From Streptomyces sp. NBC_00271 (GTDB lineage Bacteria > Actinomycetota > Actinomycetes > Streptomycetales > Streptomycetaceae): a stretch of DNA of 64,000 nt. The DNA is taken from NCBI RefSeq assembly GCF_036178845.1, contig NZ_CP108070.1, positions 4,092,001 to 4,156,000 on the forward strand, in the 5' to 3' direction. Below the pieces are notes generated by a model, which had not been told where the DNA came from, did no database searches, and saw only the letters and a program-made list of their open reading frames with translations. Numbering within the stretch: position 1 is the first letter of the stretch; the number at the start of each line of letters is the position of its first letter. The translations under genes were made by a program, and so were the position numbers. Positions 6,979 through 27,861 of this stretch are shown in pieces.

Positions 6979-7938
6979 ATGACCAAGGACCAGTCGAAGG
7001 AACGGGCCGACGAACGGTCTCAGGAACGGTCGACCGTGGCGGTACTGGGCCCGGGCGGCGTCGGCGGACTGCTGGCGGCGCTGGTGGCGCGGGCCGGACA
7101 CCGGGTGATCTGCCTGGCCGGGGACGAGACGGCGCGGGCGCTGTGCACGGACGGCATCCGCGTCCGCAGCGGCCGGTTCGGGGACTTCACGGCGGCCGTG
7201 GAGGCCGACACCGAACTGCGCGAACCGGTCGACGCCTGCCTGATCACCGTCAAGCACACGGCGCTGGACGCGGCCCTGGAGCGGGTACGGCCGGAGGTGC
7301 TCGGCGACGGACTGCTGGTCCCGTTCCTGAACGGTGTCGAACACCCCGCGACGCTGCGCGCCCGCTACGGCGCCGCCCGTGTCGCCCCCGCCGTCATCCG
7401 CGTCGAGTCGACCCGGACCGCACCCGGGGTCATCGCACACGGCAGCCCCTTCGCCGAGATCGACCTGACCGGCGCGAGCGTGCCGCGCGGCCGACTGGAC
7501 GCGCTCGCCGGGGTGTTGGCGGCGGCCGGCCCCACCGTCCGCGTGATGGACGACGAGACGGCGACGCTGTGGGCGAAGATGTCGTTCCTCGCGCCGTTCG
7601 CGCTGCTGACGACCCGTTACGGGGTGCCGCTGGGCGAGGTCCGTACACGCCACCGCGAGGAGTTGACGGCCCTGGTGGCGGAGACGGCCGCCGTCAGCCG
7701 GGCGTGCGGCGGCCCGGCGGACCCGGCCGTGGCCCTCGCCCGCTACGACGCCTTCCCGCCGGACACCAAGTCCTCCATGCAGCGCGACGCCGAGGCGGGC
7801 CGTCCGCTCGAACTGGACGCGATCGGCGGCGCGTTGCTGCGGGCCGCGGACCGGCACGGGGTGGCCGTGCCGGTGGCGCGGGGACTGGTGCGGGAGTTGG
7901 AGGGGCGGGAGGAACTGAAGGGCGACCGCCGCCACTGA
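6979..7938 (+). CDS. 2-dehydropantoate 2-reductase family protein (ApbA/PanE-like)
   Basis: 319 residues. The N-terminal Rossmann motif VLGPGGVGGLLAALVARAGH is the NADP-binding loop of ketopantoate reductases; VDACLITVKHTAL (about 78) carries the KH-type lysine, and the helical C-terminal domain has LWAKMSFLAPFALLTTRYG and the family motif KSSMQRDAEAGRPLELDAIGGALL (Glu/Asp catalytic region). The reaction in true PanE is NADPH-dependent reduction of ketopantoate to pantoate. No pantothenate genes are adjacent, so another 2-keto acid substrate is possible. ATG at 6979 with GAGG twelve bases upstream. Confidence 0.8.
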   Translation: MTKDQSKERADERSQERSTVAVLGPGGVGGLLAALVARAGHRVICLAGDETARALCTDGIRVRSGRFGDFTAAVEADTELREPVDACLITVKHTALDAALERVRPEVLGDGLLVPFLNGVEHPATLRARYGAARVAPAVIRVESTRTAPGVIAHGSPFAEIDLTGASVPRGRLDALAGVLAAAGPTVRVMDDETATLWAKMSFLAPFALLTTRYGVPLGEVRTRHREELTALVAETAAVSRACGGPADPAVALARYDAFPPDTKSSMQRDAEAGRPLELDAIGGALLRAADRHGVAVPVARGLVRELEGREELKGDRRH

Positions 7939-13634: not shown

Positions 13635-13976
13635 GTGGCTGCGACCTATGACTTCCCGAGTGACCTCCTGGCAGGCCAGGAGGAGCTGCATCAGGTCCGG
13701 GCGGAGCTCCTGGCCCTGCTCAAGAAGCTCCCCTGGTCGGTGGAGCCCCTGGACGGCTTCAGCGACGACAAGGGCTGGCGCAAGGTGGAACGCCCCGCCT
13801 CCCCCGGCTGGACACCCGACGAACAGGCCGAGGTCGAGAAGCTCCGCCAACGTGAACGAGAACTCGCCGTCTTCGTCACCTGCCACCGCTTCTGGTCGGA
13901 GGTCGCCCCGCCGGACACGGTGGACGCCCGCGCGAAGCTGAAGCACGCCCACGAGGGCCCGCCACAAACGTCGTAA
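13635..13976 (+). CDS. Conserved hypothetical protein, about 113 residues
   Basis: A small cytosolic, charged protein: SDLLAGQEELHQVRAELLALLKKLPW (helical), then WRKVERPASPGWTPDEQAEVEKLRQRERELAVFVTCHRFW. No domain recognised. GTG at 13635 is preceded by TACCAT six bases upstream, a -10-like hexamer, and no Shine-Dalgarno, so a leaderless transcript is likely. Codon use (GC at third positions) supports a real gene. Confidence 0.7.
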   Translation: MAATYDFPSDLLAGQEELHQVRAELLALLKKLPWSVEPLDGFSDDKGWRKVERPASPGWTPDEQAEVEKLRQRERELAVFVTCHRFWSEVAPPDTVDARAKLKHAHEGPPQTS

Positions 13977-14050
13977 ATCCGCGTCACTCCGGGTACGAGG
14001 GAGCCTCCGCGCGGCAACAATGAGTCACCGGCGTTGACGCGGAGGTACTC

Positions 14051-14941
14051 ATGCCCATGCTCCTCATCGAAGGCGACTACCGGATCCTGAACGCGAAACC
14101 GGACGGCGACACCGTCCGCTTCGACCCGCACGACGCGGCCTTCTGGTACGACATCCCCGGCACGCACAAGATCGACAAGACACACCGGAACAGCCGTGGC
14201 GGCGCCAACCTGCGGCTCGACGCGATCGACGCGCTGGAGACCCACTATCTGGGCACGGGCCCGCACGAGGTGCACCAGCCGCTGGACCTCGGCGCCCACG
14301 CCGCCCGGGACGAGCTGCTGAGCTGGCTCGGTTTCACCACCGTCCAGCACGCGGGTGAGAAGGTCACCGCCAGTACTCCCGAGAGCGTGCCCGGTTTCAT
14401 CCTGGCGAGCGCGATCGACGTACACAGCCGCTGCGTCGCGCTGGCCGGTCGCGGCGCACCCCCCGCGGGCAAGAAGAGCGGCGACTGGATCACCGTGGAC
14501 GTACCGCTGCTGCGCACCACCGCCAACCACCACCTGCTCACGCTCGGCCTGGCCTTCCCGACCTTCTACGCGAACCTCTTCCCCGACCTGCGCACCGAGC
14601 TGACCGCGGTGTCCCAGCAGGCGAGGTCGGCGGGCCTGGGCGTATGGGCCAAGGACATGACGACCACCGGGGCCGCGATCACCGGCCTGTCCTCCCTCAC
14701 GGACGACCTGGTGCTGCTCCCGAAGCTCTTCCGCCGCCTCGCGGACCACCTGCGCTTCGCGCCCGACTCCTCGCTGGACTGCTTCCCCAGCTACCTCTTC
14801 GGCGGCGCCGACCGATTCCGCGTCCTCTCCCAGGGCCCCACCGCCAAGACCCTCACCGGCCTGCACCACGTGGTCGCGGTCAACGGCGGGACGGTACGCA
14901 TGACCCACCCGATCGAGGACCTGGTCTTCGCCGAGGAATGA
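14051..14941 (+). CDS. SNase-like (thermonuclease-fold) domain protein
   Basis: 296 residues. The N-terminal part has KPDGDTVRF (about 16-24) and NLRLDAIDALETHY (about 54-67), matching the DGDT and RLxGIDAPE elements of staphylococcal nuclease, including the Asp-Arg-Glu pattern. The rest (GVWAKDMTTTG, then an unassigned C-terminal region) is less clear. No signal peptide, so a cytosolic nuclease or nucleic-acid-binding protein is likely. ATG at 14051 follows GGAGGT by six bases. Apparently monocistronic. Confidence 0.65.
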   Translation: MPMLLIEGDYRILNAKPDGDTVRFDPHDAAFWYDIPGTHKIDKTHRNSRGGANLRLDAIDALETHYLGTGPHEVHQPLDLGAHAARDELLSWLGFTTVQHAGEKVTASTPESVPGFILASAIDVHSRCVALAGRGAPPAGKKSGDWITVDVPLLRTTANHHLLTLGLAFPTFYANLFPDLRTELTAVSQQARSAGLGVWAKDMTTTGAAITGLSSLTDDLVLLPKLFRRLADHLRFAPDSSLDCFPSYLFGGADRFRVLSQGPTAKTLTGLHHVVAVNGGTVRMTHPIEDLVFAEE

Positions 14942-15046
14942 CGAGGCCGGACGCTACGGCATGGGGCCCAACGGCGCGACAAAATGCGCGATTATGGATG
15001 AAGGGGATGCGAAGGGGCTGTTTTGGAATGGGCCAGGGAGCCGCAG

Positions 15047-17017
15047 ATGGATACCTCGGACGAACTCCTCGACACGGCCGGCCCAGCGGCTCTCTTGACG
15101 CTGGACGGTGTCATCCGCAGCCTCAACGCCGCGATGGCCACGGCGCTGGGCAAGTCGGCGGCGCAGTGCCTGGGACGTGACTTCGGCGATCTGTGGCCCA
15201 CAAGCCAGCGGATGTCGGCCGAGAGTCTCGTGGCCCACGCCGCCAAGACGAAGGCGGTCGCGATGCGGGTGCTGGACTTCCCCGCGCGAGGCGGAGCACC
15301 CGTTGCCAGCTTGATCGAGGCGCGGCCGGTGAAGGATCCCGCCAGTGACGAGCAGCTGGTCTGGGTGCACGCACTGGACGCTCGGAACGACCTGACCAGC
15401 CTGTTGATCCCGTTCCGGATGGCCACCACGGCCGCCCACCTCGGCCTGTGGATGTATTCACCCCATGACCACCAGTTGGAGTGGCTCGGTGGCGCACCGG
15501 CCGTGGCCGCGCTCTTCCCGGATCCCACTACGTCGCTTTCCAGAGTGATGTCGGCCGTGCACCCTGACGACCAGGAGGCCTTGCGGCAGCTCCTGCGCTC
15601 GGCCTCCACCCAGCAGTCCCCCTGGGTGAGGGTGCGGTACCTCCCCCAGCACGAGGGCTGGCATCAACTGGCCGCCCAGACCCGTCGGATCCAGTTGGGA
15701 TATGACGGCCCCGAGCGGATCTTCGGGCTGATCCGCGACGACACCAAGCAGGAGAAGCGCAAGGAAGAGGTGCAGGCCGCGCTGACTGCCGAGCGACAGC
15801 GCGCCAAGGACATCGCCGACTTCTCTTCCGCCTTGATCACCGCGGGCACGGAGCAGGAGCTGCAGCAGGTCGTCCTGACCCGGCTCGCCGCGACCTTCGG
15901 CGCCAGCGGCGCCCTGCTCGCACTCGTCGACGAAGGCCGCCTGCGTGTCTCCACCGATGCCGGGATAGCCATGTGGGAGGCCGGTGTCATGCAGGGCCTG
16001 CCGCTGGACCATCCGAGCGCCCTGCCCGAGGCGATCCGCACCGGCAAGCCGCAGTTCATCCCCAACCGGGAGGATTACATGCGCCGTTGGCCACACGGGG
16101 CCGAATTTCCGCGGCTCGGCCGACTCGGCTCCGACTACGCCGTCTCGATCATGCCCCTCGTCGAGGCCGGCAACCAACCGCTCGGGGGATGGCTGGTGAC
16201 CTACGCCAGCGGACACCAACCGTCCTTGGACGAGCGGACCCTCGTGGGTACGCTGGCCGACCTGGCGGGCCAGGCACTGCGGCGCATCAGGTTGCAGCAG
16301 GCACGGGTCGAGCTGGCCACGGCACTGCAGAAGACCATGCTCCCCCGGCTGCCCGAGCATCTCGCGGGCCTGGAGGTCGCCGCCCGCTACCGGCCGAGCC
16401 GGGACGGGCTGGACATCGGCGGCGACTGGTACGACGCCTTCGAGATGCCCGACGGGGCGGTCGCCCTGGAGATCGGCGATGTTCAAGGGCATGACGTGGA
16501 CGCCGCCGCCCTCATGGGACAGGTCCGCTTGTCCATGCGCGCGATCGCCGCCCAGGAACGGGATCCGGGGACCGTGCTGATGCGCACCAACGAGCTGCTG
16601 ACCACGATGGTTCCCCCACGATTCGCCAGCTGCACCATGCTGCATCTCGACCCGCGCGACGGGCAGGTCATCGGCACCAGCGCCGGCCACGTGCCGTTGC
16701 TGTGCGCACGCAAGGACGGCAGCCACAGCGTCCGCGAGCTGCCGGGCGGCCCGGTCCTGGGAGTCGTGCCCGACACCGTGTACGGCGAGGAGACCTTCAC
16801 CCTGGACGAGGACAGCGTGCTGGTGATGGTCACAGACGGTGTGGTCGAAGGACCGGGCCTCACGTTGGACGCCGGACTGGAGCGAGCCGGAGCGCTGGCC
16901 GGCGCGGCCCTCCGTGACGGACTGAACGCCGAGGAGACCGCCGACCGCGTCCTCGACGCCGCGGTCGCGGTGGACCACCTCGACGACGTGGCCGTGCTGG
17001 TCGTCCGACGCGCATGA
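15047..17017 (+). CDS. PAS-GAF-SpoIIE protein phosphatase
   Basis: 656 residues. An N-terminal PAS (about 1-110; PAALLTLDGVIRSLNAAM) is followed by a second PAS-like region (about 125-230; HLGLWMYSPHDHQLEWLGG) and a GAF domain (about 245-400; LARLAATFGASGALLALVDEGRLRVS in outline). The C-terminus is a PP2C-type SpoIIE domain: GLDIGGDWYDAFEMPDG and IGDVQGHDVDAAALMGQ carry the metal-binding Asp residues, with VMVTDGVVEGPG near the end. Such proteins dephosphorylate anti-anti-sigma factors in partner-switching stress pathways. ATG at 15047 has GGGAG six bases upstream, which is better than TTG at 15023. No anti-sigma genes are nearby, so the partner is encoded elsewhere. Confidence 0.88.
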   Translation: MDTSDELLDTAGPAALLTLDGVIRSLNAAMATALGKSAAQCLGRDFGDLWPTSQRMSAESLVAHAAKTKAVAMRVLDFPARGGAPVASLIEARPVKDPASDEQLVWVHALDARNDLTSLLIPFRMATTAAHLGLWMYSPHDHQLEWLGGAPAVAALFPDPTTSLSRVMSAVHPDDQEALRQLLRSASTQQSPWVRVRYLPQHEGWHQLAAQTRRIQLGYDGPERIFGLIRDDTKQEKRKEEVQAALTAERQRAKDIADFSSALITAGTEQELQQVVLTRLAATFGASGALLALVDEGRLRVSTDAGIAMWEAGVMQGLPLDHPSALPEAIRTGKPQFIPNREDYMRRWPHGAEFPRLGRLGSDYAVSIMPLVEAGNQPLGGWLVTYASGHQPSLDERTLVGTLADLAGQALRRIRLQQARVELATALQKTMLPRLPEHLAGLEVAARYRPSRDGLDIGGDWYDAFEMPDGAVALEIGDVQGHDVDAAALMGQVRLSMRAIAAQERDPGTVLMRTNELLTTMVPPRFASCTMLHLDPRDGQVIGTSAGHVPLLCARKDGSHSVRELPGGPVLGVVPDTVYGEETFTLDEDSVLVMVTDGVVEGPGLTLDAGLERAGALAGAALRDGLNAEETADRVLDAAVAVDHLDDVAVLVVRRA

Positions 17018-17106
17018 CGGCACCCTCACCTGGTCGCCGCTGGGAGATCGCCTGGTCCGGCGTAAATCACCATGCTCACACCGGGTCGGCCGCTTACGGT
17101 GTCTTG

Positions 17107-17481
17107 GTGAAGAACGACCGACGCCTCCGCCGCCTCGTCGTGGACGACACCACTTGGTACTGGACGGTCCAGCAGCGGGTGAAGCCCGCCTACGAGGACT
17201 GCCGTCTGACGCTCTCCCTCTACCCCGAGGGCACGCGACGCCGACTGGCCCTGATCTTTCGCCCAGATTCGGACCGGATCATCTCGAACTGCTATTTCCT
17301 GTCCGGAACCGTGGTGCGTCTCCCGGACCACAGCTGTCTCAACCTGTACGAGCCAGGAACGGTCCGCCGCCTCCTGGACGCCGTTGCGCCGACCTCGGCC
17401 CTTTTTGCGTCCGACCAGGTGATCGAAGTAGACGGATGGCAGTACTTCGACGCCGTCGTGGAGATGGTCACAGCTGCCTAG
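17107..17481 (+). CDS. Conserved hypothetical protein
   Basis: About 124 residues beginning MKNDRRLRRLVVDDTTWYW and continuing with LSLYPEGTRRRLALIFRPD and DGWQYFDAVVEMV. No family recognised; the W-rich beta-strand pattern suggests a small globular domain. GTG at 17107 lies six bases after TACGGT, a -10-like hexamer, which fits a leaderless start. An ATG at 17014 overlapping the SpoIIE stop is in frame and would add 31 residues without recognisable sequence. Confidence 0.6.
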   Translation: MKNDRRLRRLVVDDTTWYWTVQQRVKPAYEDCRLTLSLYPEGTRRRLALIFRPDSDRIISNCYFLSGTVVRLPDHSCLNLYEPGTVRRLLDAVAPTSALFASDQVIEVDGWQYFDAVVEMVTAA

Positions 17482-17546
17482 CTCGCACGGACCCGACGGC
17501 GATCTTCTCAGCGGTCGGTTCTGGGTCGAAGTCCCAGTAGAGGTGG

Positions 17547-19112
17547 TCAGACAAGGAACTCGGCGAGCGGGAAGGAGCGATGGCGACGTGGTGGAACCAG
17601 ATAGTTCTGCCGGTGGGTCGTCTGCAGGACCGAGTTGATGCCGGCGTGGGGGCTGCGCGGTGCGACAGGGAGTGTCATATCGGGATAGTGGCCGTCCATC
17701 GAGAGCCGAACGAGATTGAACATGGCAATCGTCGGCTGGAACGAAATGAAGTGCAACCCGGCCGCCGGCTTCTTGCTGTAGTGATCTGCCGTCGGATCGG
17801 ATGTGTAGTGGAATGGATTGTCCAGCGTGTCGAAATCGCCGCGCACCGGAATGGTCGTCCCCGCCGGGTAGGCCTTCCCGTAATTGCTGGTCGTAGGTGA
17901 CGCGGTGCTGTCCACCTTCGACATGCTCCCAGTGTGTCCGTAGGCGTGGTACCGCTGGACCCCTTGCGCCACTTCGGCCTCACTTTGACCTGGCGGCTGG
18001 AGGGCGAGCGTACCCGGCGCGGGTGCGGGCGAGAGGCCGGGCTGGAGCATCGCCTGGACACGATCCGCGTACTGAGGGAAGTTCCGTTCGTACCAGGTCA
18101 CCAGATCCTGAAACAGGTGCGAGAGATGCATGGTGGTCCCCTGTTTGAAGTAACCATTGGGCCACTGGTTGGTGATGCCGGGCAGGGTCTCCAGATTGGC
18201 GATGTTGCCGGGGCCCATATTCGAGTCCAGGGTGGTGGCGAAGCCGAGGAATCCCTGCGCCTGTCGAGGAATCGACTGTGCACCGGGGATATCGGCTGCC
18301 AGCGCCAGCTTGCTCGGCAGGCCCTGTTGCCCGTAGAAACCGCCCCCGGAGAAACCCTGGCGGATACTCGTCACCTTGAACAAGCTGCCCGCCTGGTTGT
18401 TTCCAGGCCCGAACAGGAATTTTTGGGCTTCCTTGATATTGGCGAGCGAGTCGCTGCGGAGCAGCACGGCCACATCATTCTGTTCCAAGCGGACCGGCCC
18501 GAAGCCAGGCGGGGGCTGGTCACTGGGGAACGTCCTGGCTTCCTGCAGCGCATATACGGTGTGCCCATCCGCCTTGGACGTCATCAAATCGACCGGCAGA
18601 TACGTTGGGTAGCGTGTTCCCGCCTTGAAGAAGCCTGACGTCTTGCCCAGGGTCGGGATGTAGTGGTGGAAGTAGGGAAGTCCCCAGGCTACCGTGGTGG
18701 CCACTCCTGTGGGAGTGGGCGGGAATCGGCGTTCCAGATCCAGGAGGGCGGACTCGAGGTGATGCTGCGCCTCCTGCAACGCCTTGGCTTTCGCCGGCAC
18801 ATTCAGCCTTGCGGTAATGACATGATCGTGCAGGGCCGGCACCCGGACGGCAATCGTGCCATTGCTGCTCTTCACGCCAGTGCCATTGACCATGACCACC
18901 TGCTCGCCCTGCAGGATATATTGCTCCTGCACGGGCGGGCTGTCGGCGACAGCGGCCCGATCCGGTGGTTTTGCAATGCCGTCGATCATCTCATAGATGC
19001 CGGCGGATGCCAGAGCGGCACCGAAGGTGACCGCTGTCCCTTGAAGAAGGCGTCGCCTACTCAAGTTCCCGCGTGATCGTCCCGCACCCTCATTTTCGTT
19101 GCCATCTGTCAT
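17547..19112 (-). CDS. Tat-exported DyP-like (DUF7405-type) protein
   Basis: 521 residues with a clear twin-arginine signal, NLSRRRLLQGTAVTFGAALASAG (residues about 17-38). The body resembles dye-decolorizing peroxidases in layout: LLDLERRFPPTPTGV, QGFLGFATTLDSNMGPGN where DyPs have GFxDG, and AGLHFISFQPTIAMFNLVRLSMDG where DyPs have GLLFxxFQ. The heme-side GxxDG motif is not intact, so peroxidase activity is uncertain. ATG at 19112 fits the signal peptide. Base composition is lower in GC than its neighbours, with AT-ending codons, suggesting acquisition by transfer. Confidence 0.65.
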   Translation of the reverse strand: MTDGNENEGAGRSRGNLSRRRLLQGTAVTFGAALASAGIYEMIDGIAKPPDRAAVADSPPVQEQYILQGEQVVMVNGTGVKSSNGTIAVRVPALHDHVITARLNVPAKAKALQEAQHHLESALLDLERRFPPTPTGVATTVAWGLPYFHHYIPTLGKTSGFFKAGTRYPTYLPVDLMTSKADGHTVYALQEARTFPSDQPPPGFGPVRLEQNDVAVLLRSDSLANIKEAQKFLFGPGNNQAGSLFKVTSIRQGFSGGGFYGQQGLPSKLALAADIPGAQSIPRQAQGFLGFATTLDSNMGPGNIANLETLPGITNQWPNGYFKQGTTMHLSHLFQDLVTWYERNFPQYADRVQAMLQPGLSPAPAPGTLALQPPGQSEAEVAQGVQRYHAYGHTGSMSKVDSTASPTTSNYGKAYPAGTTIPVRGDFDTLDNPFHYTSDPTADHYSKKPAAGLHFISFQPTIAMFNLVRLSMDGHYPDMTLPVAPRSPHAGINSVLQTTHRQNYLVPPRRHRSFPLAEFLV

Positions 19113-19404
19113 GAAACGTATTCCGCCACTGTGGAGTAGATGTCCGCCATCACCCGGCATCGAAATGCGCACGGGAGGGGTCAGGGTTGAAATGAAAGGC
19201 GAGGGCCAGGTGAGTGCGCAGCGCCGCCAGATAGCCGATGACGGTGGGTGCACCGACTGGTTGCCGTCGTCATCACCTTCGCTGTCGCGATATAACCACA
19301 CACGGCCAGAGTCATTGAAGCCAACACGCGGCCTGGGTCAGTGGGTGCGCATTTCGCAGTCGCCGAACAAGGGAAAGTCACGGCCTTTCCACCTCACGAA
19401 CCCC

Positions 19405-19690
19405 ATGACTACGCTCCTCTCCACTTCGAATAGTGAAGACTGGGCCGAATACCCAGCTGCTCGACTGGAACCCGGCGCAGAACACGCACGCATCGCCACC
19501 GAGTTGGAGCGGCAAAGAGCCGCCGGGCACGGCCCATTAAGCCGTCAAGGGTCGAGCCCGAGGCAAGAGGACGCGGCCCATCGTGGCCGGCCACAGGCCA
19601 AGACCGTGCGGGCAAGAGCTCCCACGGTGCAGATCTCTCGATGGGAGAACGGCGTCAACCGGCCCAGCCAGACCTACCGCCCCGACCCGC
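19405..19690 (+). pseudogene. Decayed XRE-type helix-turn-helix regulator
   Basis: Pieces of an XRE regulator remain: ARIATELERQRAAGHG near 19486 and VQISRWENGVNRPSQTYR near 19628, the typical recognition-helix end (SRWENG.NRPS). The sequence between them does not form a helix-turn-helix in one frame, implying deletions or frameshifts. A terminator hairpin follows and then the left 51-bp tRNA-derived repeat. It lies outside the repeat-bounded element and may be a relic of an earlier insertion. Confidence 0.4.
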
Positions 19691-19701
19691 CACCAAAGAT
19701 C

Positions 19702-19744
19702 AAGGCCCAGATCCTCGGGTACCCACCCGCTGATCTGGGCCTTT
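19702..19744. terminator. Intrinsic terminator beside left att-like repeat
   Basis: 12-bp perfect stem AAGGCCCAGATC / GATCTGGGCCTT with an 18-base loop that contains a second small stem (CGGGT/ACCCG). It lies 15 bases left of the 51-bp repeat, where the native terminator of the minus-strand tRNA-Val would be before insertion. Confidence 0.7.
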
Positions 19745-19758
19745 CTCGTGTCCTGAGA

Positions 19759-19809
19759 CTGGTGGGCGCGGACGGTTTCGAACCGCCGACATCCGCCTTG
19801 TAAGGGCGG
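19759..19809. repeat. Left 51-bp att-like repeat (tRNA-Val 3' part)
   Basis: 51 bases identical to 27607-27657, which covers the anticodon arm, T arm, acceptor strand and CCA end of the tRNA-Val gene. Identity stops at the base after the anticodon stem. A truncated tRNA 3' half away from its gene is the classical footprint of a site-specific integration (attL/attR). Read in the plus direction it also produces a spurious protein tail, ADGFEPPTSAL. Confidence 0.85.
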
Positions 19810-19880
19810 AGTCCTTGGTTCGTTACTCGATGTCTGCAGCGCAAGCCAGGATGTCAATGACGTGATGTTCACTGAGTCCC

Positions 19881-20783
19881 ATGGAGGATTCGGAAGTGGT
19901 TGCCGCCATCTGGAAGATCATCGACTCATCCGTTGAGAGCGGCCCGCCTGTCATTCTTGAGGCGCCAGAGGGCACAAGTCTGACAGAACTGCTCGCCGAA
20001 GTAGGCCGACGGGCAGGCAGGCCCCGCAACCTTGCCGCGGACGGCTTCACCGACCCGTCACTCACTGAGCGCACTGGACTGCCGCTCGTCGAGCCGTTCG
20101 GGGACGAACTGTTGGAGATGCGGGGCTGGGCCTACGGGTCTCACTGGATCGGTTGCGGTCGCGTGGTCACCTCACGTCGAGAGCGCACGGTCGTAGTCAT
20201 AGCCAAACGTGAGGACCCTGCGGTCAGCGTCACAGGCAAACGGGAGGACCCCGCGGTTACCGGGTTCCCCGAGGGCGCCTCCTGGGCCGAGAAGCTGCGT
20301 ATCCTCACCGACTGGGACCCGGTGCCGCAGCCGGCCGTCAACTGGCCTGCCGTCGAGGCCGATCTGGCCACCTCGCTCCCGAGCGATTACAAGGAGATCG
20401 TCGACCTCTTCGGTCCGGGTGGCTTCGACGAGTACGTGGACCTCCTTGTCCCCGGAGCCTTGGGCATGGACCTCGTGGGCTGGGCCAAGAGCGATGGTGA
20501 TGCCACCGATCTGTGGGAGCCCTACGCCAGCTACCCAGCGCCGCGGGGGCTCCTGCGGTGGGGTGCGTCAGAGCAAGAATTCGACTTCGTCTGGCAGACC
20601 GGGACGGCCGATCCGGATGACTGGCCGGTCCTCGTGGGCCTGTTCGGTGACTGGGAGCGATTCGACTGCGGTCTGGGTGAGTTCCTCGTCCGCATGCTCA
20701 CAGACGTGCAGTACGGGTTCCCCACAAGCCGCCTGCACGTTCACTTCTTTCAGAGTCACGATCTCCGATCCGTTGAGGGGTAA
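19881..20783 (+). CDS. SUKH (SMI1/KNR4)-like protein
   Basis: 300 residues. The C-terminal half (about 150-295) fits the SUKH superfamily: WPAVEADLATSLPSDYKEIVDLFGPG resembles the E..LP.DYK..... FGPGGFD start, followed by the WEPYASYPAPRGLLRWG strand and a late LVGLFGDWERFDCGLGEFL. SUKH proteins are often immunity proteins to polymorphic nuclease toxins, though many are orphans. The N-terminal half (to about 140) is unassigned and carries a duplicated KREDPAV separated by nine residues. ATG at 19881; GTG at 19896 with GGAGG eight bases upstream may be the real start. No toxin gene is adjacent. First cargo gene of the element. Confidence 0.65.
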   Translation: MEDSEVVAAIWKIIDSSVESGPPVILEAPEGTSLTELLAEVGRRAGRPRNLAADGFTDPSLTERTGLPLVEPFGDELLEMRGWAYGSHWIGCGRVVTSRRERTVVVIAKREDPAVSVTGKREDPAVTGFPEGASWAEKLRILTDWDPVPQPAVNWPAVEADLATSLPSDYKEIVDLFGPGGFDEYVDLLVPGALGMDLVGWAKSDGDATDLWEPYASYPAPRGLLRWGASEQEFDFVWQTGTADPDDWPVLVGLFGDWERFDCGLGEFLVRMLTDVQYGFPTSRLHVHFFQSHDLRSVEG

Positions 20784-21387
20784 CTCCGCCACAGCGCTCC
20801 TCGCGCCGCGCTGACCATCGGCACGTCCTCAACGGCGTTGGTCGCGACAGAGGGTTCAGTTTGAGGGGATCAAGTCCCTGAACGTCGTTGATGTCAGCCG
20901 TGGATGTCAGAGGCCTTCCGATCCGTAGCTCGGTCGTTGAAGGTCATCCAGGCTGCCGCCACGCCCATGAGGGCCGGTGCGGATCCCTGCTGGTTGCTGG
21001 GTTGCTGTACTTCGCTGCTGTACCGCCATCGTCGGCCGGTGGCCCGTCCGCGGAAATCTCTCGGGCGGGCCGGGCACAGGCAGCGGCCTGCCTATGACTC
21101 CATACCTGTGCCGTGGGGCTACGAGCGCTGCGAGGCAGAGGCGTGCCCACGTGCGGGGCTGCGGCCGCCTCGCTGCCATCGGCACGTCACAGCCCGTTAG
21201 TCGCTCAGCTTGGCGTTCAACGCCGCAGGTCACCTTGCTCCGGCTGAAACATGGTCATTCGTGTGGTGGAGTGCGGCGCGCGTCGGCTTGTGCGAACAGG
21301 CCGCGCCCGATTGTCTGCGTCACGTCAGCCAGCATGTCCGCTGTCAGCCAGGATGTCCGCTGGCGGGCGGCTACTTCGGGAGTTACC
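20784..21387. other. Gene-poor stretch inside the element
   Basis: About 600 bases with only short frames on both strands, none with recognisable domains or convincing starts. One plus-strand frame (20904-21200) contains Cys pairs (YERCEAEACP) but I cannot assign it. The motif GATGTCAG or close variants recurs near 20886, 20900 and 21340. Probably decayed sequence plus the upstream region of the surface-protein operon. Confidence 0.4.
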
Positions 21388-21903
21388 GTGCGCGCACGAA
21401 GCCTATCTGTCGCGGCCGCAGCCGCTGCTCTCGTCCTGATCCAGCCTGGCCTCGCCGTCGCGGCGGACGACCCGAGCACCACAGTCACGTACACCGTCAC
21501 GTCCGGCGCATTGACGCTGTCGGTACCGGCCAGCGCCGCCCTCGGCTCGGGAGCGCCCGGCACCACGATCAGCGCGCCGATCGGCCCCGTGACCGTCACC
21601 GACGATCGCGCCCTCCTCTCGGCCTCCTGGACGGTGACCGCGGCGGAGACGGACTTCACGAGCGGCGGGTCGACGATCCCCGCCACCAGCGCTGACTACG
21701 ATCCCGGGTCGATCACGACGACCGGTACCATTACCGCCACCGGAACGCCCGTGACGCTGAGCAACTCCGGGCAGACGGTAGTCACCGGGAGCGCCGGTGT
21801 CGGAGACAACACCGCGACCTGGAACCCGACAGTCGCCGTTAGCGTGCCGGCCGGCGCCGTCGGCGGGGCCTACACCGGAACGCTGACCCAATCCGTTGCC
21901 TGA
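21388..21903 (+). CDS. WxL-domain-like secreted surface protein
   Basis: 171 residues with a cleavable signal (RSLSVAAAAAALVLIQPGLAVAADD) and a beta-rich body. The segment LLSASWTVTAAETDF resembles a WxL motif (W-T-V), with Thr/Ser/Ala-rich strands to the end (GGAYTGTLTQSVA), as in the small wall-binding WxL proteins. GTG at 21388 has GGGAG five bases upstream. The next gene, starting four bases after the stop, encodes a DUF916-like anchor protein, the usual partner of WxL proteins, which supports the call. Secreted, probably binding peptidoglycan. Confidence 0.6.
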   Translation: MRARSLSVAAAAAALVLIQPGLAVAADDPSTTVTYTVTSGALTLSVPASAALGSGAPGTTISAPIGPVTVTDDRALLSASWTVTAAETDFTSGGSTIPATSADYDPGSITTTGTITATGTPVTLSNSGQTVVTGSAGVGDNTATWNPTVAVSVPAGAVGGAYTGTLTQSVA

Positions 21904-21907
21904 CGGA

Positions 21908-22936
21908 ATGAAGGGTGCGCGCCGGTACTGGGTTCTGCCGCTGGTGCTGGCCTTCGTACAGGCGGCCGGGGTGATGCCGGCGGCGGGGCACGGGGCGCCC
22001 GGGGTGTCCTCCCCCCAGCACCCGGCTGCGGGCAGGATCATCAGTATCAAGCTGCTCGACGCTCCGGAAAGCCGCCGTGCCGATCCCAGGGCGCAGGCCT
22101 ACATCGTCGACCACGTCGCGCCCGGCTCGACCATCGAGCGGCGGGTGGAGGTCACCAACGAGTCGTCCACACCGATGCACGTCAACGTCTACGCCGCGGC
22201 GGCCACCATCGCGAAGGGTGAGTTCACCTTCGCGCCGGAGCGCACCTCCAACGAGCTGACCGGCTGGACATCACTCGATACGGCGGACCTTGACCTGGCG
22301 GCCTCCGAAACGGCGCGAGTACGCACCACCATCCGGGTGCCCAGGGACGCCGCCGCCGGGGAACGATACGGCGTCATCTGGGCGCAGACGGGCACACCCA
22401 CGGACCGCTCGCACAATGTGGCGATGCTGGGCCGGGTGGGCGTCCGCATGTACATCGACGTCGGTCCCGGTGGTGAGCCACCCTCGGACTTCAAGATCGA
22501 GCGGCTCTATCCAACCCGAGCCCGCGACGGGCGGGGGGAGGTTCGCGCCCGGATCCACAACACGGGGGGCCGTGCCCTGGACATCAGCGGGGCACTCTCC
22601 CTCTTCGACGGGCCGGGCGGACTGCGCGCTGGACCGTTCTCGGCCAAGACGGGCACCACACTGGCTCCGGGCGGCCTTGCGGAGGCGGTCGTCCCGCTGG
22701 ACGCACGGCTGCCGGACGGCCCGTGGACCGTGAAGCTCACGCTCAAAAGCGGCCTGGTCGAGCGCGCCACGCGCGCCACCATCACCTTCCCGACGACTCT
22801 CGGTAGCGTCGGAGCGGTCGCCGCGTCGGTCGCCCAGCAAGGGCACTTCCCCACCCCTGTGGTCGCCGGGCTTTCAGCCCTCGTCCTCACCGCTCTGTGC
22901 CTTCTGCTCTCCAAGTTCCTCCGGCGCCGCCGGTGA
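21908..22936 (+). CDS. DUF916-like membrane-anchored surface protein (WxL partner)
   Basis: 342 residues: signal peptide (MKGARRYWVLPLVLAFVQAAG), an extracellular Ig-like region with YIVDHVAPGSTIERRVEVTNESSTPMHVNVYAA, typical of the WxL peptidoglycan-binding domain (DUF916), a second beta domain (about 200-290) and a C-terminal membrane segment VVAGLSALVLTALCLLLSKF followed by RRRR. So it is anchored in the membrane with a short positively charged cytosolic tail. ATG at 21908 starts four bases after the upstream stop; TTG at 21896 is an overlapping alternative. Operon with the WxL-like gene. Confidence 0.65.
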   Translation: MKGARRYWVLPLVLAFVQAAGVMPAAGHGAPGVSSPQHPAAGRIISIKLLDAPESRRADPRAQAYIVDHVAPGSTIERRVEVTNESSTPMHVNVYAAAATIAKGEFTFAPERTSNELTGWTSLDTADLDLAASETARVRTTIRVPRDAAAGERYGVIWAQTGTPTDRSHNVAMLGRVGVRMYIDVGPGGEPPSDFKIERLYPTRARDGRGEVRARIHNTGGRALDISGALSLFDGPGGLRAGPFSAKTGTTLAPGGLAEAVVPLDARLPDGPWTVKLTLKSGLVERATRATITFPTTLGSVGAVAASVAQQGHFPTPVVAGLSALVLTALCLLLSKFLRRRR

Positions 22937-23081
22937 CCACTCCGACGGAGCCCCGCAGCCTGCTGGTCTGCTCCGTGGGCGACGCATGACGGTCGTCATC
23001 GAGCGCGTCACCGCTCCTTTTTTTGCGCAGCACCATCCTCGCGGGCGCTCTGTCCTCGGTACACACTCGCCCACACGTTAA

Positions 23082-23097
23082 GTGATATTAATGTCAC
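23082..23097. promoter_or_regulatory. AT-rich palindrome upstream of the DUF11 gene
   Basis: GTGATATTAATGTCAC matches its reverse complement at 14 of 16 positions, conspicuous in this GC-rich sequence. A TATCTA hexamer follows at about 23104 and may be a -10 box. Candidate operator/promoter for the gene starting at 23140. Confidence 0.45.
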
Positions 23098-23139
23098 GAT
23101 GAGTATCTATGGCTAGTTATCGACGGTTTGGAAGCGGAG

Positions 23140-23943
23140 ATGTCGGTGTTCAGGCATGGGAGAGGGCGGGCTGAAGCAAGCCGCGGCACGGGAGGTACGG
23201 GCGGCATGTTTCGACTGTGGCTGAGGGTGTGGCCCCGCAAGACGGGGGCGGTCGTGACAGTCGGGCTGGTCGTCCTGGCGATCGTCCTGGCCACAGCCTG
23301 GACCGCCGCGGTTCAGCGCGCCTACGTCGCCCAGGTCAACGACGGGACGGTGCCGGTGAACGACACCTTCACCACCACCGGCCTCACCAAACCCAGTGGC
23401 ACCGCCACCACTGACCCCAGTGGCACCGACAGCACCGGCAGTACCGGCAGTACCGGCCTCACATTTACGGTCATCCCAGTCGACCAACCCTCCCTGACCA
23501 TCGCCAAGAGTCACGCGGACACCTTCACCCGGGGCGAGGACGGCGTTTACACCATCACTGTGGGTAACGTCACCGCAGCCGGCCCGACCAATGGCACCAC
23601 GGTCACCGTCCACGACATCCTCCCCACAGGTCTTCGGGCCGACAGGATCACCGGCAGGGGATGGCACTGCATTCTGGCCACCCTCACCTGTACCCGCAGC
23701 GACGTCTTGCCTGCCGGGCACAGCTACCCGCCCGTCACCCTGAAGGTCGACGTCTCCTGCGACGCCCGTGCACGGGTCACCAACACCGCCACCGTCACTG
23801 GAGGCGGTGACACCACCACTCACACCGCCACCGACACCACCACGATCGAGCACCACGAGCACCACGAGCACCACGGGCACGACGGCGACGGGCACGACGG
23901 CCACGACGGGCGACATGACCATTGCGATCGCCACGACCACTGA
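23140..23943 (+). CDS. Membrane-anchored DUF11 domain protein with His/Asp-rich tail
   Basis: About 267 residues. A transmembrane segment (TGAVVTVGLVVLAIVLATAW, about 35-55) is followed by a Thr/Ser/Gly-rich linker with GST repeats, then a DUF11-type beta domain (LTIAKSHADTFTRGEDGVYTI to VTNTATVTGGGDTTT). The last 31 residues are almost only His, Asp, Glu and Gly (EHHEHHEHHGHDGDGHDGHD and on), a likely metal-binding tail. The start is uncertain: ATG at 23140 has GGAAG upstream; ATG at 23206, behind GGGAGG, would give a protein starting just before the membrane segment; TTG at 23128 is also open. Probably extracytoplasmic. Confidence 0.6.
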   Translation: MSVFRHGRGRAEASRGTGGTGGMFRLWLRVWPRKTGAVVTVGLVVLAIVLATAWTAAVQRAYVAQVNDGTVPVNDTFTTTGLTKPSGTATTDPSGTDSTGSTGSTGLTFTVIPVDQPSLTIAKSHADTFTRGEDGVYTITVGNVTAAGPTNGTTVTVHDILPTGLRADRITGRGWHCILATLTCTRSDVLPAGHSYPPVTLKVDVSCDARARVTNTATVTGGGDTTTHTATDTTTIEHHEHHEHHGHDGDGHDGHDGRHDHCDRHDH

Positions 23944-24091
23944 CAACACTCAGCCCGCGTGGGCGTAGCGCAGGGCGTGCAGGTCCATGAGTCACTCTGG
24001 GAGAGAGGCGGGGTGACCTGCGCGCGGGTTCACAGGTACTGCTGGAGCCGGTACCGCAGCAGTCCGGCCTGGGCGGTGCTTTCGGCGCAAT

Positions 24092-25696
24092 TCAGCTTCC
24101 TCGTCTCGCCGCCCCCGCCAGAATCCATGCTTCGACCGCCTCGTACTGCTGGCGCTGTTCCTCCGCCTTTTGCCGCCCGGAGATCTTTGTCCCTGCCCAG
24201 CCGAGAGCGAAGCCCAGGGGTATGGAGACAAGGCCGGTGGTGGTGAACGGGAACCAGTTGAAGTCGGAGTGCGGGAAGGCGGAGAAGGGGGAACCGGAGA
24301 CGAGGTTGGTGCCGGTCATGAGGACGAGGGTGGCGAGTGTGCCGCCGATCAGGGTCCACAGCAGACCCGTGCGGGTGTAGCGGCGCCAGAAGAGGCTGTA
24401 GACCAGTGCCGGTGCGAGTGCGGATGCACCGATGGAGGCCGACAGCAGAGCCAACGGCTGCAGATTGTGGTGCTGGACGAGGGTGGCCAGCAGGATGGTG
24501 GGGGCGCCCACCGCCAGGGCGGAGACCCGGGCGATGGTCATCTCGCGGCGGGGAGTCGTCTCACGGTGCGCGAGCAGGTCGTGCGCGAGGGTGTTGGCAC
24601 AGGCCAGGATCATGCTGGCGACCGATGCGAGCAGGGTGAGGAAAAGCGCCGTTGTGACCATGGTGAACAGGAACGTTTCGGACGTCGAAACGTACGTTCC
24701 GAGCGCGGCCCGTGAGCCCAGCAGATACGCGGTCCTGCCCGTCGGGTCGGCACCGGCGATCGTCGTGCGCCCGATCAGCGCCGTTGCCCCGATGCTGACG
24801 ACCGTGCAGATCAGCATGAACAGTGCGACGCACGACACAGCCCAGGACATCGACCGGCGCACCTGACGGGCACTGGTCGCGGTGTACATGCGCATGGTGA
24901 CGTGCGGCAGGCAGGCGCCGCCGAGGATGACGGTGAGCTCCGAGCTGATCATGTCGAGCCGGGGGCTGGGGCCACCGGCGAACTGGAGACCGGAGCGCAG
25001 GAAGGCCGACCCCACGCCGCTGTGCGCTGCCGCGGCGGAGAACAGCTTGCCCAGGTCCCAGTCGAACTGCCGCAGAATCAGCGCGGCCACGACCGCGCCG
25101 GAGCCGAACAGCATCACGATCTTCAAGACCTGGATGAGGGCTGTGCCCTTCATCCCGCCGATCACCGCGTAAGTGATCATCAGTGCGCCGATCCCGACGA
25201 TGCATCCGGTCTTCAGCGAGTCACTGGAAAAGCCAAGGATGAACGCCAGCAGATCACCGGTGCCGGCGAGCTGGATGAGCATCATCGGCAGCAGGGCCGC
25301 GATCGTCGTCACACACGCGGCGATGCGCACCTTGCGGCCGGGCATCCGCCGCGCAAGCACGTCGCCCATGGTGAACCGGCCAGCGTTGCGCAACGGTTCG
25401 GCCAGCAGGAACATCAGCAGCATGAGGGAGAGGGCGATGCTCAACGCCAGGACGACGCCGTCGTACCCGTCGAGCGCGATCACCCCGCCTGTGGACAGGA
25501 CCGTCGCCGCGGAAATGTAATCCCCGGCGATGGCAAGGCCGTTGCGCATCGGCGACAGCGACCCGTACCCGGTGTAGAACTCGTCGAGGTCGTCACCATC
25601 AGGTCCTGTCATCACGCACAGCAGCAGGATGATCGTAGCGACCGCCGTGAATGCCACCAAAGACATCGCTTGCGTGGAACTGCTGAAACCGCTCAC
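24092..25696 (-). CDS. Sodium:solute symporter (acetate/monocarboxylate permease-like)
   Basis: 534 residues with about 13 hydrophobic segments. FYTGYGSLSPMRNGLAIAGDYISAATVLSTGG (about 39-70) is the signature of the SSS-family ActP/MctC-type permeases, with the Na+-site region GDYISAA. GTG at 25696 overlaps the DUF485 gene stop (GTGA). DUF485-symporter pairs usually import acetate, propionate or pyruvate. A longer in-frame reading upstream has no membrane-protein features and overlaps the DUF485 gene, so it is rejected. Confidence 0.85.
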   Translation of the reverse strand: MSGFSSSTQAMSLVAFTAVATIILLLCVMTGPDGDDLDEFYTGYGSLSPMRNGLAIAGDYISAATVLSTGGVIALDGYDGVVLALSIALSLMLLMFLLAEPLRNAGRFTMGDVLARRMPGRKVRIAACVTTIAALLPMMLIQLAGTGDLLAFILGFSSDSLKTGCIVGIGALMITYAVIGGMKGTALIQVLKIVMLFGSGAVVAALILRQFDWDLGKLFSAAAAHSGVGSAFLRSGLQFAGGPSPRLDMISSELTVILGGACLPHVTMRMYTATSARQVRRSMSWAVSCVALFMLICTVVSIGATALIGRTTIAGADPTGRTAYLLGSRAALGTYVSTSETFLFTMVTTALFLTLLASVASMILACANTLAHDLLAHRETTPRREMTIARVSALAVGAPTILLATLVQHHNLQPLALLSASIGASALAPALVYSLFWRRYTRTGLLWTLIGGTLATLVLMTGTNLVSGSPFSAFPHSDFNWFPFTTTGLVSIPLGFALGWAGTKISGRQKAEEQRQQYEAVEAWILAGAARRGS

Positions 25697-26148
25697 TGAG
25701 CCACTCCCCGCTTCACGTCCAGCTCGGCCTGCTTGCGAATGCGGTCCGCAATCGGGTCGACCCTGCGGCGTGCGGCGTGCTCGTACAGCCCGACCGCCAG
25801 ACAGGTGACGGGTACCTGGAGCAGCCCGAGAAGCAGCCCCGTGGACAGGCCGCCCGAGACAGTGCCCGTCATCAACGACGGTGCGAACGCGGACAGCACA
25901 AGAAAGAGCGTGAAGTATCCGAGCGCCGTGAACGTCGCCACGCGCCGCTGGGTGCGGTAGGCGCGGCGCAACACACGTAGGTCGCTGTGGTGACCGAGCC
26001 CCGTATGAGGCGACGTCATCCCGCTGTCGAACTCCTGATGCTGCTGCCACGCGTAGATGACATCGGAAGAGGAGAAATGAGGCGCGGGGCGGTACGGCGC
26101 TCCTGACCGGTGCGGCTGGTATTCGGGATAAGGGAACGGATCTGGCAT
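25693..26148 (-). CDS. DUF485 family membrane protein
   Basis: 151 residues: a Pro/His/Tyr-rich N-terminus, then LRRAYRTQRRVATFTALGYFTLFLVLSAFAPSLM and a second hydrophobic hairpin GLLLGLLQVPVTCLAVGLYEHAA, the two-TM DUF485 layout. Small subunit genes of this kind precede SSS symporters. ATG at 26148 has AGGAG seven bases upstream. Translationally coupled to the symporter through a GTGA overlap. Confidence 0.8.
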   Translation of the reverse strand: MPDPFPYPEYQPHRSGAPYRPAPHFSSSDVIYAWQQHQEFDSGMTSPHTGLGHHSDLRVLRRAYRTQRRVATFTALGYFTLFLVLSAFAPSLMTGTVSGGLSTGLLLGLLQVPVTCLAVGLYEHAARRRVDPIADRIRKQAELDVKRGVAQ

Positions 26149-26729
26149 CCCGTTTCTCCTCATGCGACTCATGGACCCATACGGGACCGAAGGGAAGCGG
26201 GGGGTGGGCGCACGCTACCCAGCAGGTATGGACCAGCGCCAGACTCTGGCCAAACTGAGCAGTTGGTATGCAGCAGATCGATGGCTGTATCAACTACTTC
26301 TGTTCGGCGCCGGGGAATCATGGGCCACTGGCCTCGATGTTTCGTGACGGCCCGTTGGTTCATCCAGTGGGCCGTTTCGGCTGCTCAGGCGGGTGGCGGG
26401 CATGGTCGCGGCCCGCCTGTCGCGTCGGGTGGGCGCCGGGTTCCACTGCTCCGGTCGTGGAACGGTTCGCTGGGGCGGGGCGTTGTTGCTGGTCAGCCGG
26501 GATTCGGCAGTGCCTGGAGTCGGGCGAACGCGGTGGTGATCAGCTGGGTCCAGTGCTGGGCCAGGCGGAGCCAGCGGCACCCTTCGCGGCACCTCCGGCA
26601 ATGCCGTGATGGCGACGAGGGTTGCAGTCGCGGTGCCGAAGGATTGCGGTGATGCTGTCAGGGGGAGCGTGGCCGGCCTCGCACGGGCAGTGTGCGTCGG
26701 TGACCGCGCTGTACAGGAAGGGTGCTGCC
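26149..26729. other. Gene-poor stretch inside the element
   Basis: About 580 bases between divergent genes. It should hold the promoters of the DUF485/symporter operon (left) and of the small membrane protein (right). On the minus strand a short frame ending near 26495 reads WTQLITTAFARLQALPNPG before a stop, which looks like the end of a lost gene, perhaps a transposase, but I cannot confirm this. Confidence 0.3.
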
Positions 26730-27161
26730 ATGACAACGGTGCCGGACAGGACACGGAGAGTCCCCGGAAAGCCCGGCAGCGGCGAAACGATCAACGAGGC
26801 CTCCTCGTTCGCCGGGATCATGATGCTGCTCAGCGGGCCCCTCAGCATTCTTATGGGCGCGTCCGGCATCGCACAGGACACCCTGTTCGCCGCGTCCCGG
26901 TACGCCTACCGGTTCGACCTGACCGCTTGGGGCTGGATTCACCTTGTGATCGGAGTGGCACTTGTCATTACCGGCCTGGGAGTCCTGACAGACAAGAGCT
27001 GGGGGCGCGGGGCCGGTGTAGTGGTGGCAGGGATCAGCCTGATCACCCAGTTCATGTTCGTTCCGTACTACCCGTTGTGGGCCATCCCTGCGATGACACT
27101 CGACCTCCTGATCCTGTTTGCGCTGACGAGGGTCCATATCGAGACCAGGGGCGGTCGGTGA
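26730..27161 (+). CDS. DUF7144-like small membrane protein
   Basis: 143 residues with four hydrophobic segments (about 25-45, 66-84, 91-108, 112-133); the pattern FAGIMMLLSGPLSILMG ... WGWIHLVIGVALVITGLGVL matches the four-TM DUF7144/DUF4383-like proteins common in Streptomyces. Function unknown. ATG at 26730 follows AGGAAGG by eight bases. Confidence 0.7.
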   Translation: MTTVPDRTRRVPGKPGSGETINEASSFAGIMMLLSGPLSILMGASGIAQDTLFAASRYAYRFDLTAWGWIHLVIGVALVITGLGVLTDKSWGRGAGVVVAGISLITQFMFVPYYPLWAIPAMTLDLLILFALTRVHIETRGGR

Positions 27162-27245
27162 ACCCAGCACTTCTGCCTGGGTCGATGGTGGACGGGATGG
27201 GAGCTCCCCCGCGCACGCCACCGCGGACCCGCAGTCGCGAACGGC

Positions 27246-27540
27246 GCCCCCTCCATCCCGGTGCTGGCCGATCCCCCTTTCGTGCTCTCCATCGCGCTCG
27301 GCCTTCGTCGTGGCGATGCGTGAGCGTGCGGGTGATCGCTGGGAAGAGAGTGGCCACGTCTTCACCACGCGAACGGGCCGACCGATCGCCGCCGGGGTGG
27401 CGCCACGCGTCGTGATGGAGATCCTGGGGCACAGCCAGATCGCCGTCACGATGAACGTCTACGCCCACGTGGTCCAGGACACGCAGCGCGAGGCGAGCCA
27501 CATGGACCGGCTGCTCACGAGGCGCCTACAGCGCGAGTAG
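27246..27540 (+). pseudogene. Tyrosine integrase remnant
   Basis: Two pieces in different frames. About 27246-27326 reads VLSIALGLRRGDA then a stop, the conserved segment around the first catalytic Arg. From 27310 in another frame comes GHVFTTRTGRPIAAGVAPRVVMEILGHSQIAVTMNVYAH, the C-terminal segment with the second His/Trp box region and the Tyr of MNVYAH. The sequence between GRPI and PRVVMEILGHS, where the HDLRHT box should be, is missing. So the gene has at least one frameshift and an internal deletion and is inactive. It ends 66 bases from the tRNA-proximal repeat, the standard place for this integrase. Confidence 0.75.
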
Positions 27541-27570
27541 TCCCGGCGCTGATGTCAGATCCGGATGTCA

Positions 27571-27604
27571 AAGACCCCCAGCCATGATCGGCTGGGGGTC
27601 TTTT
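27571..27604. terminator. Intrinsic terminator beside tRNA-Val
   Basis: 13-bp perfect stem AAGACCCCCAGCC / GGCTGGGGGTCTT, 6-base loop, followed by TTTT on the plus strand. It ends the integrase remnant and, read on the minus strand, follows the tRNA by a few bases. Confidence 0.85.
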
Positions 27605-27606
27605 GC

Positions 27607-27657
27607 CTGGTGGGCGCGGACGGTTTCGAACCGCCGACATCCGCCTTGTAAGGGCGG
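27607..27657. repeat. Right 51-bp att-like repeat (within tRNA-Val)
   Basis: Direct repeat of 19759-19809, covering the tRNA-Val gene from the anticodon stem through CCA. Because this copy is part of the intact tRNA, it is the tRNA-proximal attachment site. Confidence 0.85.
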
Positions 27658-27682
27658 CGCTCTACCGCTGAGCTACGCGCCC
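27608..27682 (-). tRNA. tRNA-Val (anticodon TAC)
   Basis: On the minus strand: acceptor GGGCGCG pairs with CGCGCCC; D arm GCTC-AGCGGTA-GAGC; anticodon stem CCGCC/GGCGG with loop CTTACAA, giving anticodon TAC (reads GUA, valine); T arm GGCGG-TTCGAAA-CCGTC; discriminator A followed by encoded CCA (27608-27610). The 3' part is duplicated 7.85 kb to the left as an att-like site. Confidence 0.95.
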
Positions 27683-27861
27683 AGGACGAGTCGACAGCCT
27701 ACATTGCCCGGGGGGATGCCCCGCAAACCCGTATCCGGGGGTTAACCCCACCTCCGGTCCGGGAGCGGCCCGGATCCCGCGGCGGACCCCGGAACCGTAC
27801 GGTCGAAAGGCGTCGAAGGGCATCGGAGCGCGTCGGCGTTTCATTCCAGGGGGAGATCTTC

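What the first reader, a model, noticed from the sequence alone, without database searches (positions are those of the whole stretch)
19759..27657. tRNA-Val-integrated element with 51-bp att repeats
A 51-base direct repeat flanks about 7.85 kb. The right copy is the 3' part of an intact tRNA-Val(TAC), the left copy an orphan tRNA 3' end with a terminator just outside. Integrase remains lie beside the tRNA-proximal copy. No transfer or replication genes are recognisable, so this is either a decayed integrative element or a minimal island mobilised in trans. The cargo (surface proteins and a symporter) is unusual for such an element.
Basis: partly seen in the sequence, partly recalled or inferred. 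Interest (0 to 1): 0.75.

Follow-up and report, generated by a model that had tools for sequence, protein, structure and literature searches.

The report
Decayed AICE remnant in tRNA-Val
Two copies of a tRNA-gene end flank the wreck of a conjugative mobile element in a Streptomyces chromosome, patched with unrelated genes; it is a clear example of a known decay process at a busy insertion site, not a new kind of element.

Summary
In detail: a 51-bp direct repeat (19759-19809, 27607-27657) flanks 7.8 kb; the right copy is the 3' part of tRNA-Val(TAC), beside a C-terminal integrase fragment. The unit is most likely the remnant of a pSAM2-type AICE. S. diastatochromogenes carries, in the same tRNA-Val, a 13.5-kb AICE (GntR-Nudix, FtsK-type Tra, RepSA, full integrase) whose integrase tail is 98% identical to the fragment. 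The predicted join of 19758 to the tRNA occurs as one stretch (at most one gap) in 6 of 20 named relatives. But the left flank is not chromosome: in two of those six it directly follows a full-length second-type integrase. The chromosomal neighbour ends at 13976 and lies within 150 bp of the tRNA in 27 of 59 measured genomes, so about 13.6 kb has accreted. The cargo is a patchwork: in S. diastatochromogenes its blocks lie at separate places, and no listed row for 391 other Streptomyces genomes shows the composite. The integrase is broken and the left arm site stands about 1 kb out of register, so excision is unlikely (untested). AICE decay to partial integrase, cargo and repeats is published (PMC9513070): new member of a known kind.

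The parts
13635..13976 (+). conserved gene that is the original chromosomal neighbour of tRNA-Val
   Evidence: within 150 bp of tRNA-Val in 27 of 59 genomes measured
13977..19675 (.). older accreted DNA left of the repeat (296-aa ORF; ORF 15023-17017, PAS- and RssB-like by weak NCBIfam matches; DUF7405 protein 17547-19301)
   Evidence: 15115-19804 largely shared with S. olivochromogenes (L095); the DUF7405 gene has one weak 40% match in the other 149 sampled Streptomyces
19676..19758 (.). int-proximal right end with terminator of a second AICE class (int2)
   Evidence: in L042 and L050 this sequence starts 15 and 36 bp after the stop codon of a 377-aa integrase
19759..19809 (+). left attachment copy (orphan tRNA 3' end; 46-bp core 19759-19804)
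19835..20816 (+). inserted block with ORF 19881-20783 (no significant family match)
   Evidence: 82% to L098 5433-6349 (S. glomeratus genome), a place without the tRNA-Val core
20889..20909 (+). left arm-type repeat TGATGTCA-N5-GATGTCA, displaced (+1112 from the core instead of +114)
21069..23947 (+). surface-protein block: ORFs 21277-21903, 21896-22936 (WxLIP_PGBD and NPCBM_assoc below cut-off), 23128-23943 (DUF11)
   Evidence: 93% to S. diastatochromogenes, where it lies outside the AICE, left of its left repeat
24075..26333 (-). monocarboxylate/acetate-type symporter (SSF) and DUF485 gene 25693-26172
   Evidence: 98% to a different locus of S. diastatochromogenes
26331..26578 (.). IS1380-family transposase fragment
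26583..27173 (+). DUF7144 gene block (ORF 26622-27161)
   Evidence: 96% to a third contig of S. diastatochromogenes
27172..27277 (.). dispersed non-coding repeat, joined directly to the integrase remnant
27283..27540 (+). integrase (int1) C-terminal remnant with internal deletions
27550..27570 (+). right arm-type repeat TGATGTCA-N5-GATGTCA, 75 bp before the core
27607..27657 (+). right attachment copy inside tRNA-Val
27608..27682 (-). intact tRNA-Val(TAC), the integration target

Best explanation
The 7.85-kb unit is the wreck of a pSAM2-type actinomycete integrative and conjugative element (AICE). [quoted passage not shown] this rebuilt the tRNA and left a 51-bp copy. Shown by comparison: the site, the integrase identity, the arm-type repeats, complete related AICEs at the same tRNA, and the accretion. 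Inferred: that the int2 element came first; that deletions with little or no homology removed the transfer/replication core and most of int; that further deletions and insertions brought in gene blocks from elsewhere. The unit now most likely stays put; loss by recombination between the 51-bp copies remains possible.
For: Complete int1 AICE in the same tRNA-Val of S. diastatochromogenes between copies of the same 46-bp core, about 13.5 kb apart, with NUDIX+GntR, FtsK_SpoIIIE, DUF2637, RepSA (E 4.1e-148) and Phage_integrase. Window int tail 98% identical to it. Joined junction found as one stretch in 6 of 20 named loci, 4 without a gap and 2 with one gap opening. The 21-bp arm repeat lies 75 bp before the core in the window and at five other int1 right ends among the 16 loci scanned (L038 = L111, L040, L095, L096, L116). 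Conserved flanking gene within 150 bp of tRNA-Val in 27 of 59 genomes measured, more than 5 kb away in 10. Extra core copies in L095/L113, L114 and L116. Block joints abrupt.
Against: No rep or tra fragment was found between the repeats, so loss of the core is inferred from relatives. The left repeat continues GGCGGAGTCC after the core, unlike the int1 left-arm class and only partly like the int2 class, so the left end may belong to a third element and the unit may never have been one AICE. The arm repeat is not universal: L055 and L047, which hold int1 remnants, gave no match to the pattern. The direction of movement of the cargo blocks is not established.
Confidence: 0.85

Rival explanations
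1. Composite of at least three element ends (int2 right end, an unknown left end at 19810, an int1 element with detached left arm), so the 51-bp copies do not bound a single former element.
For: Left repeat is followed by neither known left-arm class; int1 left arm lies 1112 bp from the core; arm copies away from +114/+124 and -75 of a core also occur in L096, L116, L134 and L052.
Against: A single insertion of about 1 kb (19835-20816, found elsewhere in S. glomeratus) would explain nearly the same displacement (998 bp).
Confidence: 0.4
2. Minimal island mobilised in trans (CIME-like or satellite element) by a related AICE integrase.
For: Identical 51-bp copies; right arm site in register; published suggestion that such remnants could be mobilised in cis after accretion of an AICE (PMC9513070, section 14).
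Against: Left arm site about 1 kb out of register; the only full-length near int1 relative found in the genome (71%) sits at tRNA-Arg(CCT) with different arm repeats; not seen as a unit in the listed rows for the other 10 genomes or the other 391.
Confidence: 0.08
3. Vertically inherited chromosomal region in which a tRNA fragment was duplicated by chance, not an integrated element.
For: Left-flank genes are shared with S. olivochromogenes.
Against: Integrase remnant and arm repeat in the canonical position; relatives have nothing or different AICEs at this point.
Confidence: 0.02

Closest known systems
AICEs of the pSAM2 class (complete copy at this tRNA-Val in S. diastatochromogenes, L038/L111)
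   Same: same tRNA, same 46-bp core, same integrase tail, same arm repeat and terminator
   Different: no rep, tra or complete int found; different genes between the repeats
Decayed AICEs of PMC9513070 (2022): partial integrase, cargo and two direct repeats; AICE03 in a tRNA-Val with 46-nt repeats
   Same: same remnant anatomy, accretion at one site, tRNA-Val target; equal repeat length (their repeat sequence not seen)
   Different: here several abutting cargo blocks lie at separate places in a close relative, and a second AICE class bounds the left side
CIME (cis-mobilisable element), e.g. XSAM1 beside pSAM2 (PMC4891641, passage seen)
   Same: flanked by att-like repeats, no integration/transfer genes found (the flanking by att sites is recalled as a CIME feature)
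   Different: mobilisation not shown; no complete AICE next to it at this tRNA in this genome's window

Membership tests
AICE (functional) | tyrosine integrase beside an att site in a tRNA 3' end | tested here: not met
   site met, integrase only a C-terminal remnant
AICE (functional) | FtsK/SpoIIIE-type transfer protein | tested here: not met
   none among the 8 ORFs between the repeats given to Pfam
AICE (functional) | replication initiator such as RepSA | tested here: not met
   none among those 8 ORFs; present in the S. diastatochromogenes AICE
AICE remnant | direct repeats related to those of a complete AICE at the same site | tested here: met
AICE remnant | partial integrase related to a complete AICE integrase at that site | tested here: met
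   98% to residues 334-384
AICE remnant | relatives with an empty or otherwise occupied site | tested here: met
CIME | flanking att sites without own integration/transfer genes | tested here: met
   (8 ORFs tested; integrase only as a fragment)
CIME | att sites usable by an incoming element's integrase | tested here: inconclusive
   right arm site in register, left arm site displaced by 998 bp
CIME | mobilised in cis after accretion of an AICE | not testable with these tools
   needs excision and transfer assays

The most novel reading that the evidence does not exclude
Attachment-site arrays at this tRNA-Val act as gene traps: successive AICE insertion, deletion and exchange between elements gather blocks that lie at separate places in relatives (surface proteins, symporter, DUF7144) into one composite that a newly arriving AICE could carry off as a unit.
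Probability: 0.12. Interest if true: 0.5.

Novelty: new member of a known kind. Interest (0 to 1): 0.3.

Why it matters
It gives a base-level picture of AICE decay: a precise core, arm repeats, a complete relative at the same tRNA in a close species, and cargo traced to other loci. It also corrects a common reading: a clean joint in relatives does not prove a pristine empty site, since here the flank is itself the end of another element. The arm repeat at -75/+114 from the core could help to find such att sites.

Tried and rejected
Third attachment copy in the window: none. Left flank as chromosome: rejected. The 106-bp sequence 27172-27277 as an AICE core part: it occurs near AICE genes in L042 and L050 but also beside unrelated genes and in several copies per genome, so treated as a dispersed repeat. 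Rfam match for it: none; a Plastid-ycf2 match below its gathering score overlaps the tRNA on the other strand, and a weak sR53 match (E 0.74) lies in the symporter; both disregarded. Plasmid collection: 28 records match, none covers 80% of the query; of the 20 listed, most are the IS1380 piece, one is a 74% symporter match, two are short matches touching both repeat regions. Trans-acting integrase in the genome: nearest full-length relative is at tRNA-Arg with other arm repeats. A relic of a lost core near 20790 was looked for by eye in the sequence printed and not supported. Structure prediction and protein-database searches were not used: they would not bear on the question.

Full report
Observation. 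The window lies at G000:C1:4092001-4156000 of a 12.28-Mb genome; the 20 loci are all from Streptomyces. The 51-bp repeat, the intact tRNA-Val(TAC) on the minus strand, the orphan left copy and the integrase fragment are all there, and the repeat is not chance (none in 100 shuffles).

The predicted joint. I joined 19659-19758 to 27607-27742 in a script and compared it with the 20 loci. Six carry it as one stretch at 88-95%: L050 (S. olivochromogenes), L055, L047 and L042 without a gap, L057 (NBC_01549) and L049 with one gap opening each (alignment). Two (L038 S. diastatochromogenes, L040 NBC_00568) instead have the integrase-side end joined to the tRNA, as in the window; L040 also carries the left-flank sequence at its own left repeat. 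Eleven show only the core and tRNA side, or little more (L051 over the core region only), and L048 gave no row.

The left flank is another element's end. In L042 and L050 the sequence equal to 19682/19703-19758 begins 15 and 36 bp after the stop codon of a 377-aa integrase (int2), and these loci carry GntR, FtsK-type and RepSA-like genes (of these only the L050 int2 was given to Pfam; the others are judged by their likeness to the S. diastatochromogenes proteins tested there). In L040 the same sequence follows a shorter int2 ORF; in L047, L049, L055 and L057 no int2 ORF showed in the ORF lists. So the six joints are sites occupied by, or left over from, a second class of AICE. The chromosome itself is seen in other relatives: the end of the conserved match at 13956 (gene 13635-13976) lies 52-130 bp from the tRNA match in L039, L044 (S. 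scabiei), L046 and L056. In the genus sample of 150 genomes, own included, 95 had a hit to this protein. I took the 65 strong hits outside G000 (E 3.6e-42 or better) and read tRNA positions: 1 had no usable tRNA row, 5 had the gene inverted relative to the tRNA, and 59 could be measured: 27 at 150 bp or less, 10 at 151-1000 bp, 12 at 1-5 kb, 10 above 5 kb. The window's distance is 13.6 kb.

A complete relative at the same tRNA. S. diastatochromogenes (flank 96.8% identical) has, in the same tRNA-Val and between two copies of the same 46-bp core, about 13.5 kb with NUDIX/GntR, an HTH/TPR regulator (below Pfam cut-offs, but for one TPR model just above), FtsK_SpoIIIE, DUF2637, RepSA and a 384-aa integrase. 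The window's integrase remnant is this int1: 98% identical over residues 334-384. Against L038 the window lacks two internal stretches of int and nearly everything upstream; the second gap of about 35 aa includes the HDAR (HxxR; motif name recalled) of the full protein (compare).

Arm-type sites. Right after the int1 stop, 75 bp before the core (measured to the start of the 28-base search pattern), stands TGATGTCA-N5-GATGTCA. Of 16 other loci scanned, the same 75-bp spacing is found in L038 and L111 (one S. diastatochromogenes site seen through two fetches), L040, L095, L116 and L096. A left-arm copy stands +114 from the core in L040, L095, L114 (two) and L134, and +124 in L111. In the window the right site is in register and the left one stands at 20889, +1112 from the core. 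The 998-bp excess is close to the size of the block 19835-20816, which has an 82% relative in the S. glomeratus genome at a place without the tRNA-Val core (L098). Exceptions: copies at other distances occur in L116 (+1905), L096 (+1997), L134 (-2706) and L052 (-3551); L055 and L047, which hold int1 remnants, gave no match, nor did L039, L044, L045, L046 and L056. That these repeats bind the integrase is inference. The motif occurs twice in the window and in none of 100 mononucleotide shuffles.

Cargo. Blocks with abrupt ends abut at about 26331-26333, 26578-26583, 27172-27173 and 27277-27283; microhomology is 0-5 bp as read by eye. In S. diastatochromogenes the surface-gene block (21069-23947, 93%) lies outside its AICE, to the left of the left repeat; the symporter block (24075-26333, 98%) lies on another contig, whose flanks correspond to G000:3.990-4.000 Mb, where G000 shows no match to the symporter; the DUF7144 block (26583-27173, 96%) lies on a third contig, with a matching flank on one side at G000:5.667-5.670 Mb and only short pieces on the other. 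26331-26578 is a fragment of an IS1380-family transposase gene (annotation under the matches; ORF in L091, by eye). In the listed rows, none of the other 10 genomes and none of the other 391 holds the composite. Limits: both listings are cut, and one search scored only one or two places per genome; 189 of its 392 genomes (own included) had a match at E 1e-60 or better. The largest single foreign piece listed there is about 2.2 kb of 7.8 kb; G271 and G327 each have two adjacent pieces spanning about 2.75 kb of the surface block. Between-repeat G+C is 66.8% against 69.5% for the window.

Mobility. int1 is broken. The closest full-length integrase in G000 (71%, 5348147-5349274) sits by tRNA-Arg(CCT), with TGCCGTCAAA-type repeats in the corresponding place. 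int2 is represented in G000 by partial or diverged relatives. I therefore think autonomous or trans excision unlikely, without having tested it.

Literature. PMC9513070 (2022, by Choufa and others, name recalled; [quoted passage not shown] PMC3218068 (2011; passages seen) reports tandem AICEs with integrases of different sub-families in one tRNA-Arg, and remnant AICEs lacking tra or rep. PMC4891641 (passages seen) names the CIME XSAM1 beside pSAM2. Searches. This case therefore belongs to a described kind; the patchwork cargo and the misleading empty-site joint are its points of interest.

Noticed in passing
L134 about 7387-7540 (G000:4640386); L003 about 1501-1600 (G000:8700472): Two further tRNA-Val-like core copies lie 0.5 and 4.6 Mb from tRNA-Val. 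The first has, by eye, an int2-like end on its left and the int1 arm repeat at +114 on its right, and lies between two tRNA-Arg(TCT) calls with a RepSA-like fragment. The second has an int2 remnant to its left, only a partial arm motif, and an ARAGORN tRNA-Trp call over it that looks spurious.
   Followed up: partly
window 27172-27277: A 106-bp non-coding repeat, about 83-90% identical, dispersed in many Streptomyces genomes (several copies in some), in part with an inverted 28-bp piece about 90 bp upstream; no Rfam match.
   Followed up: partly
L116 (G024), L114 (G040): Arrays at the same tRNA-Val with four and three core copies.
   Followed up: no
L057 8769-9821: An ORF that looks like a TnpB-type protein (by eye) lies beside tRNA-Val, between it and the conserved right flank.
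   Followed up: no
window 17547-19301: A protein with DUF7405 and a Tat-like leader (by eye) has only one weak match in the other 149 sampled Streptomyces but is 96% conserved at DNA level in S. olivochromogenes at the same place.
   Followed up: partly
window 21277-23943: Three adjacent surface-protein genes, the second with a weak WxL-interacting-protein match and the third with DUF11; related clusters lie at other loci in a few Streptomyces (L092, and G271 and G327).
   Followed up: no
plasmid records NZ_CP108854.1 (526870-526972) and NZ_CP109170.1 (735152-735224): Short 86-88% matches touching both repeat regions on large Streptomyces plasmids, perhaps a tRNA-Val-like core there.
   Followed up: no
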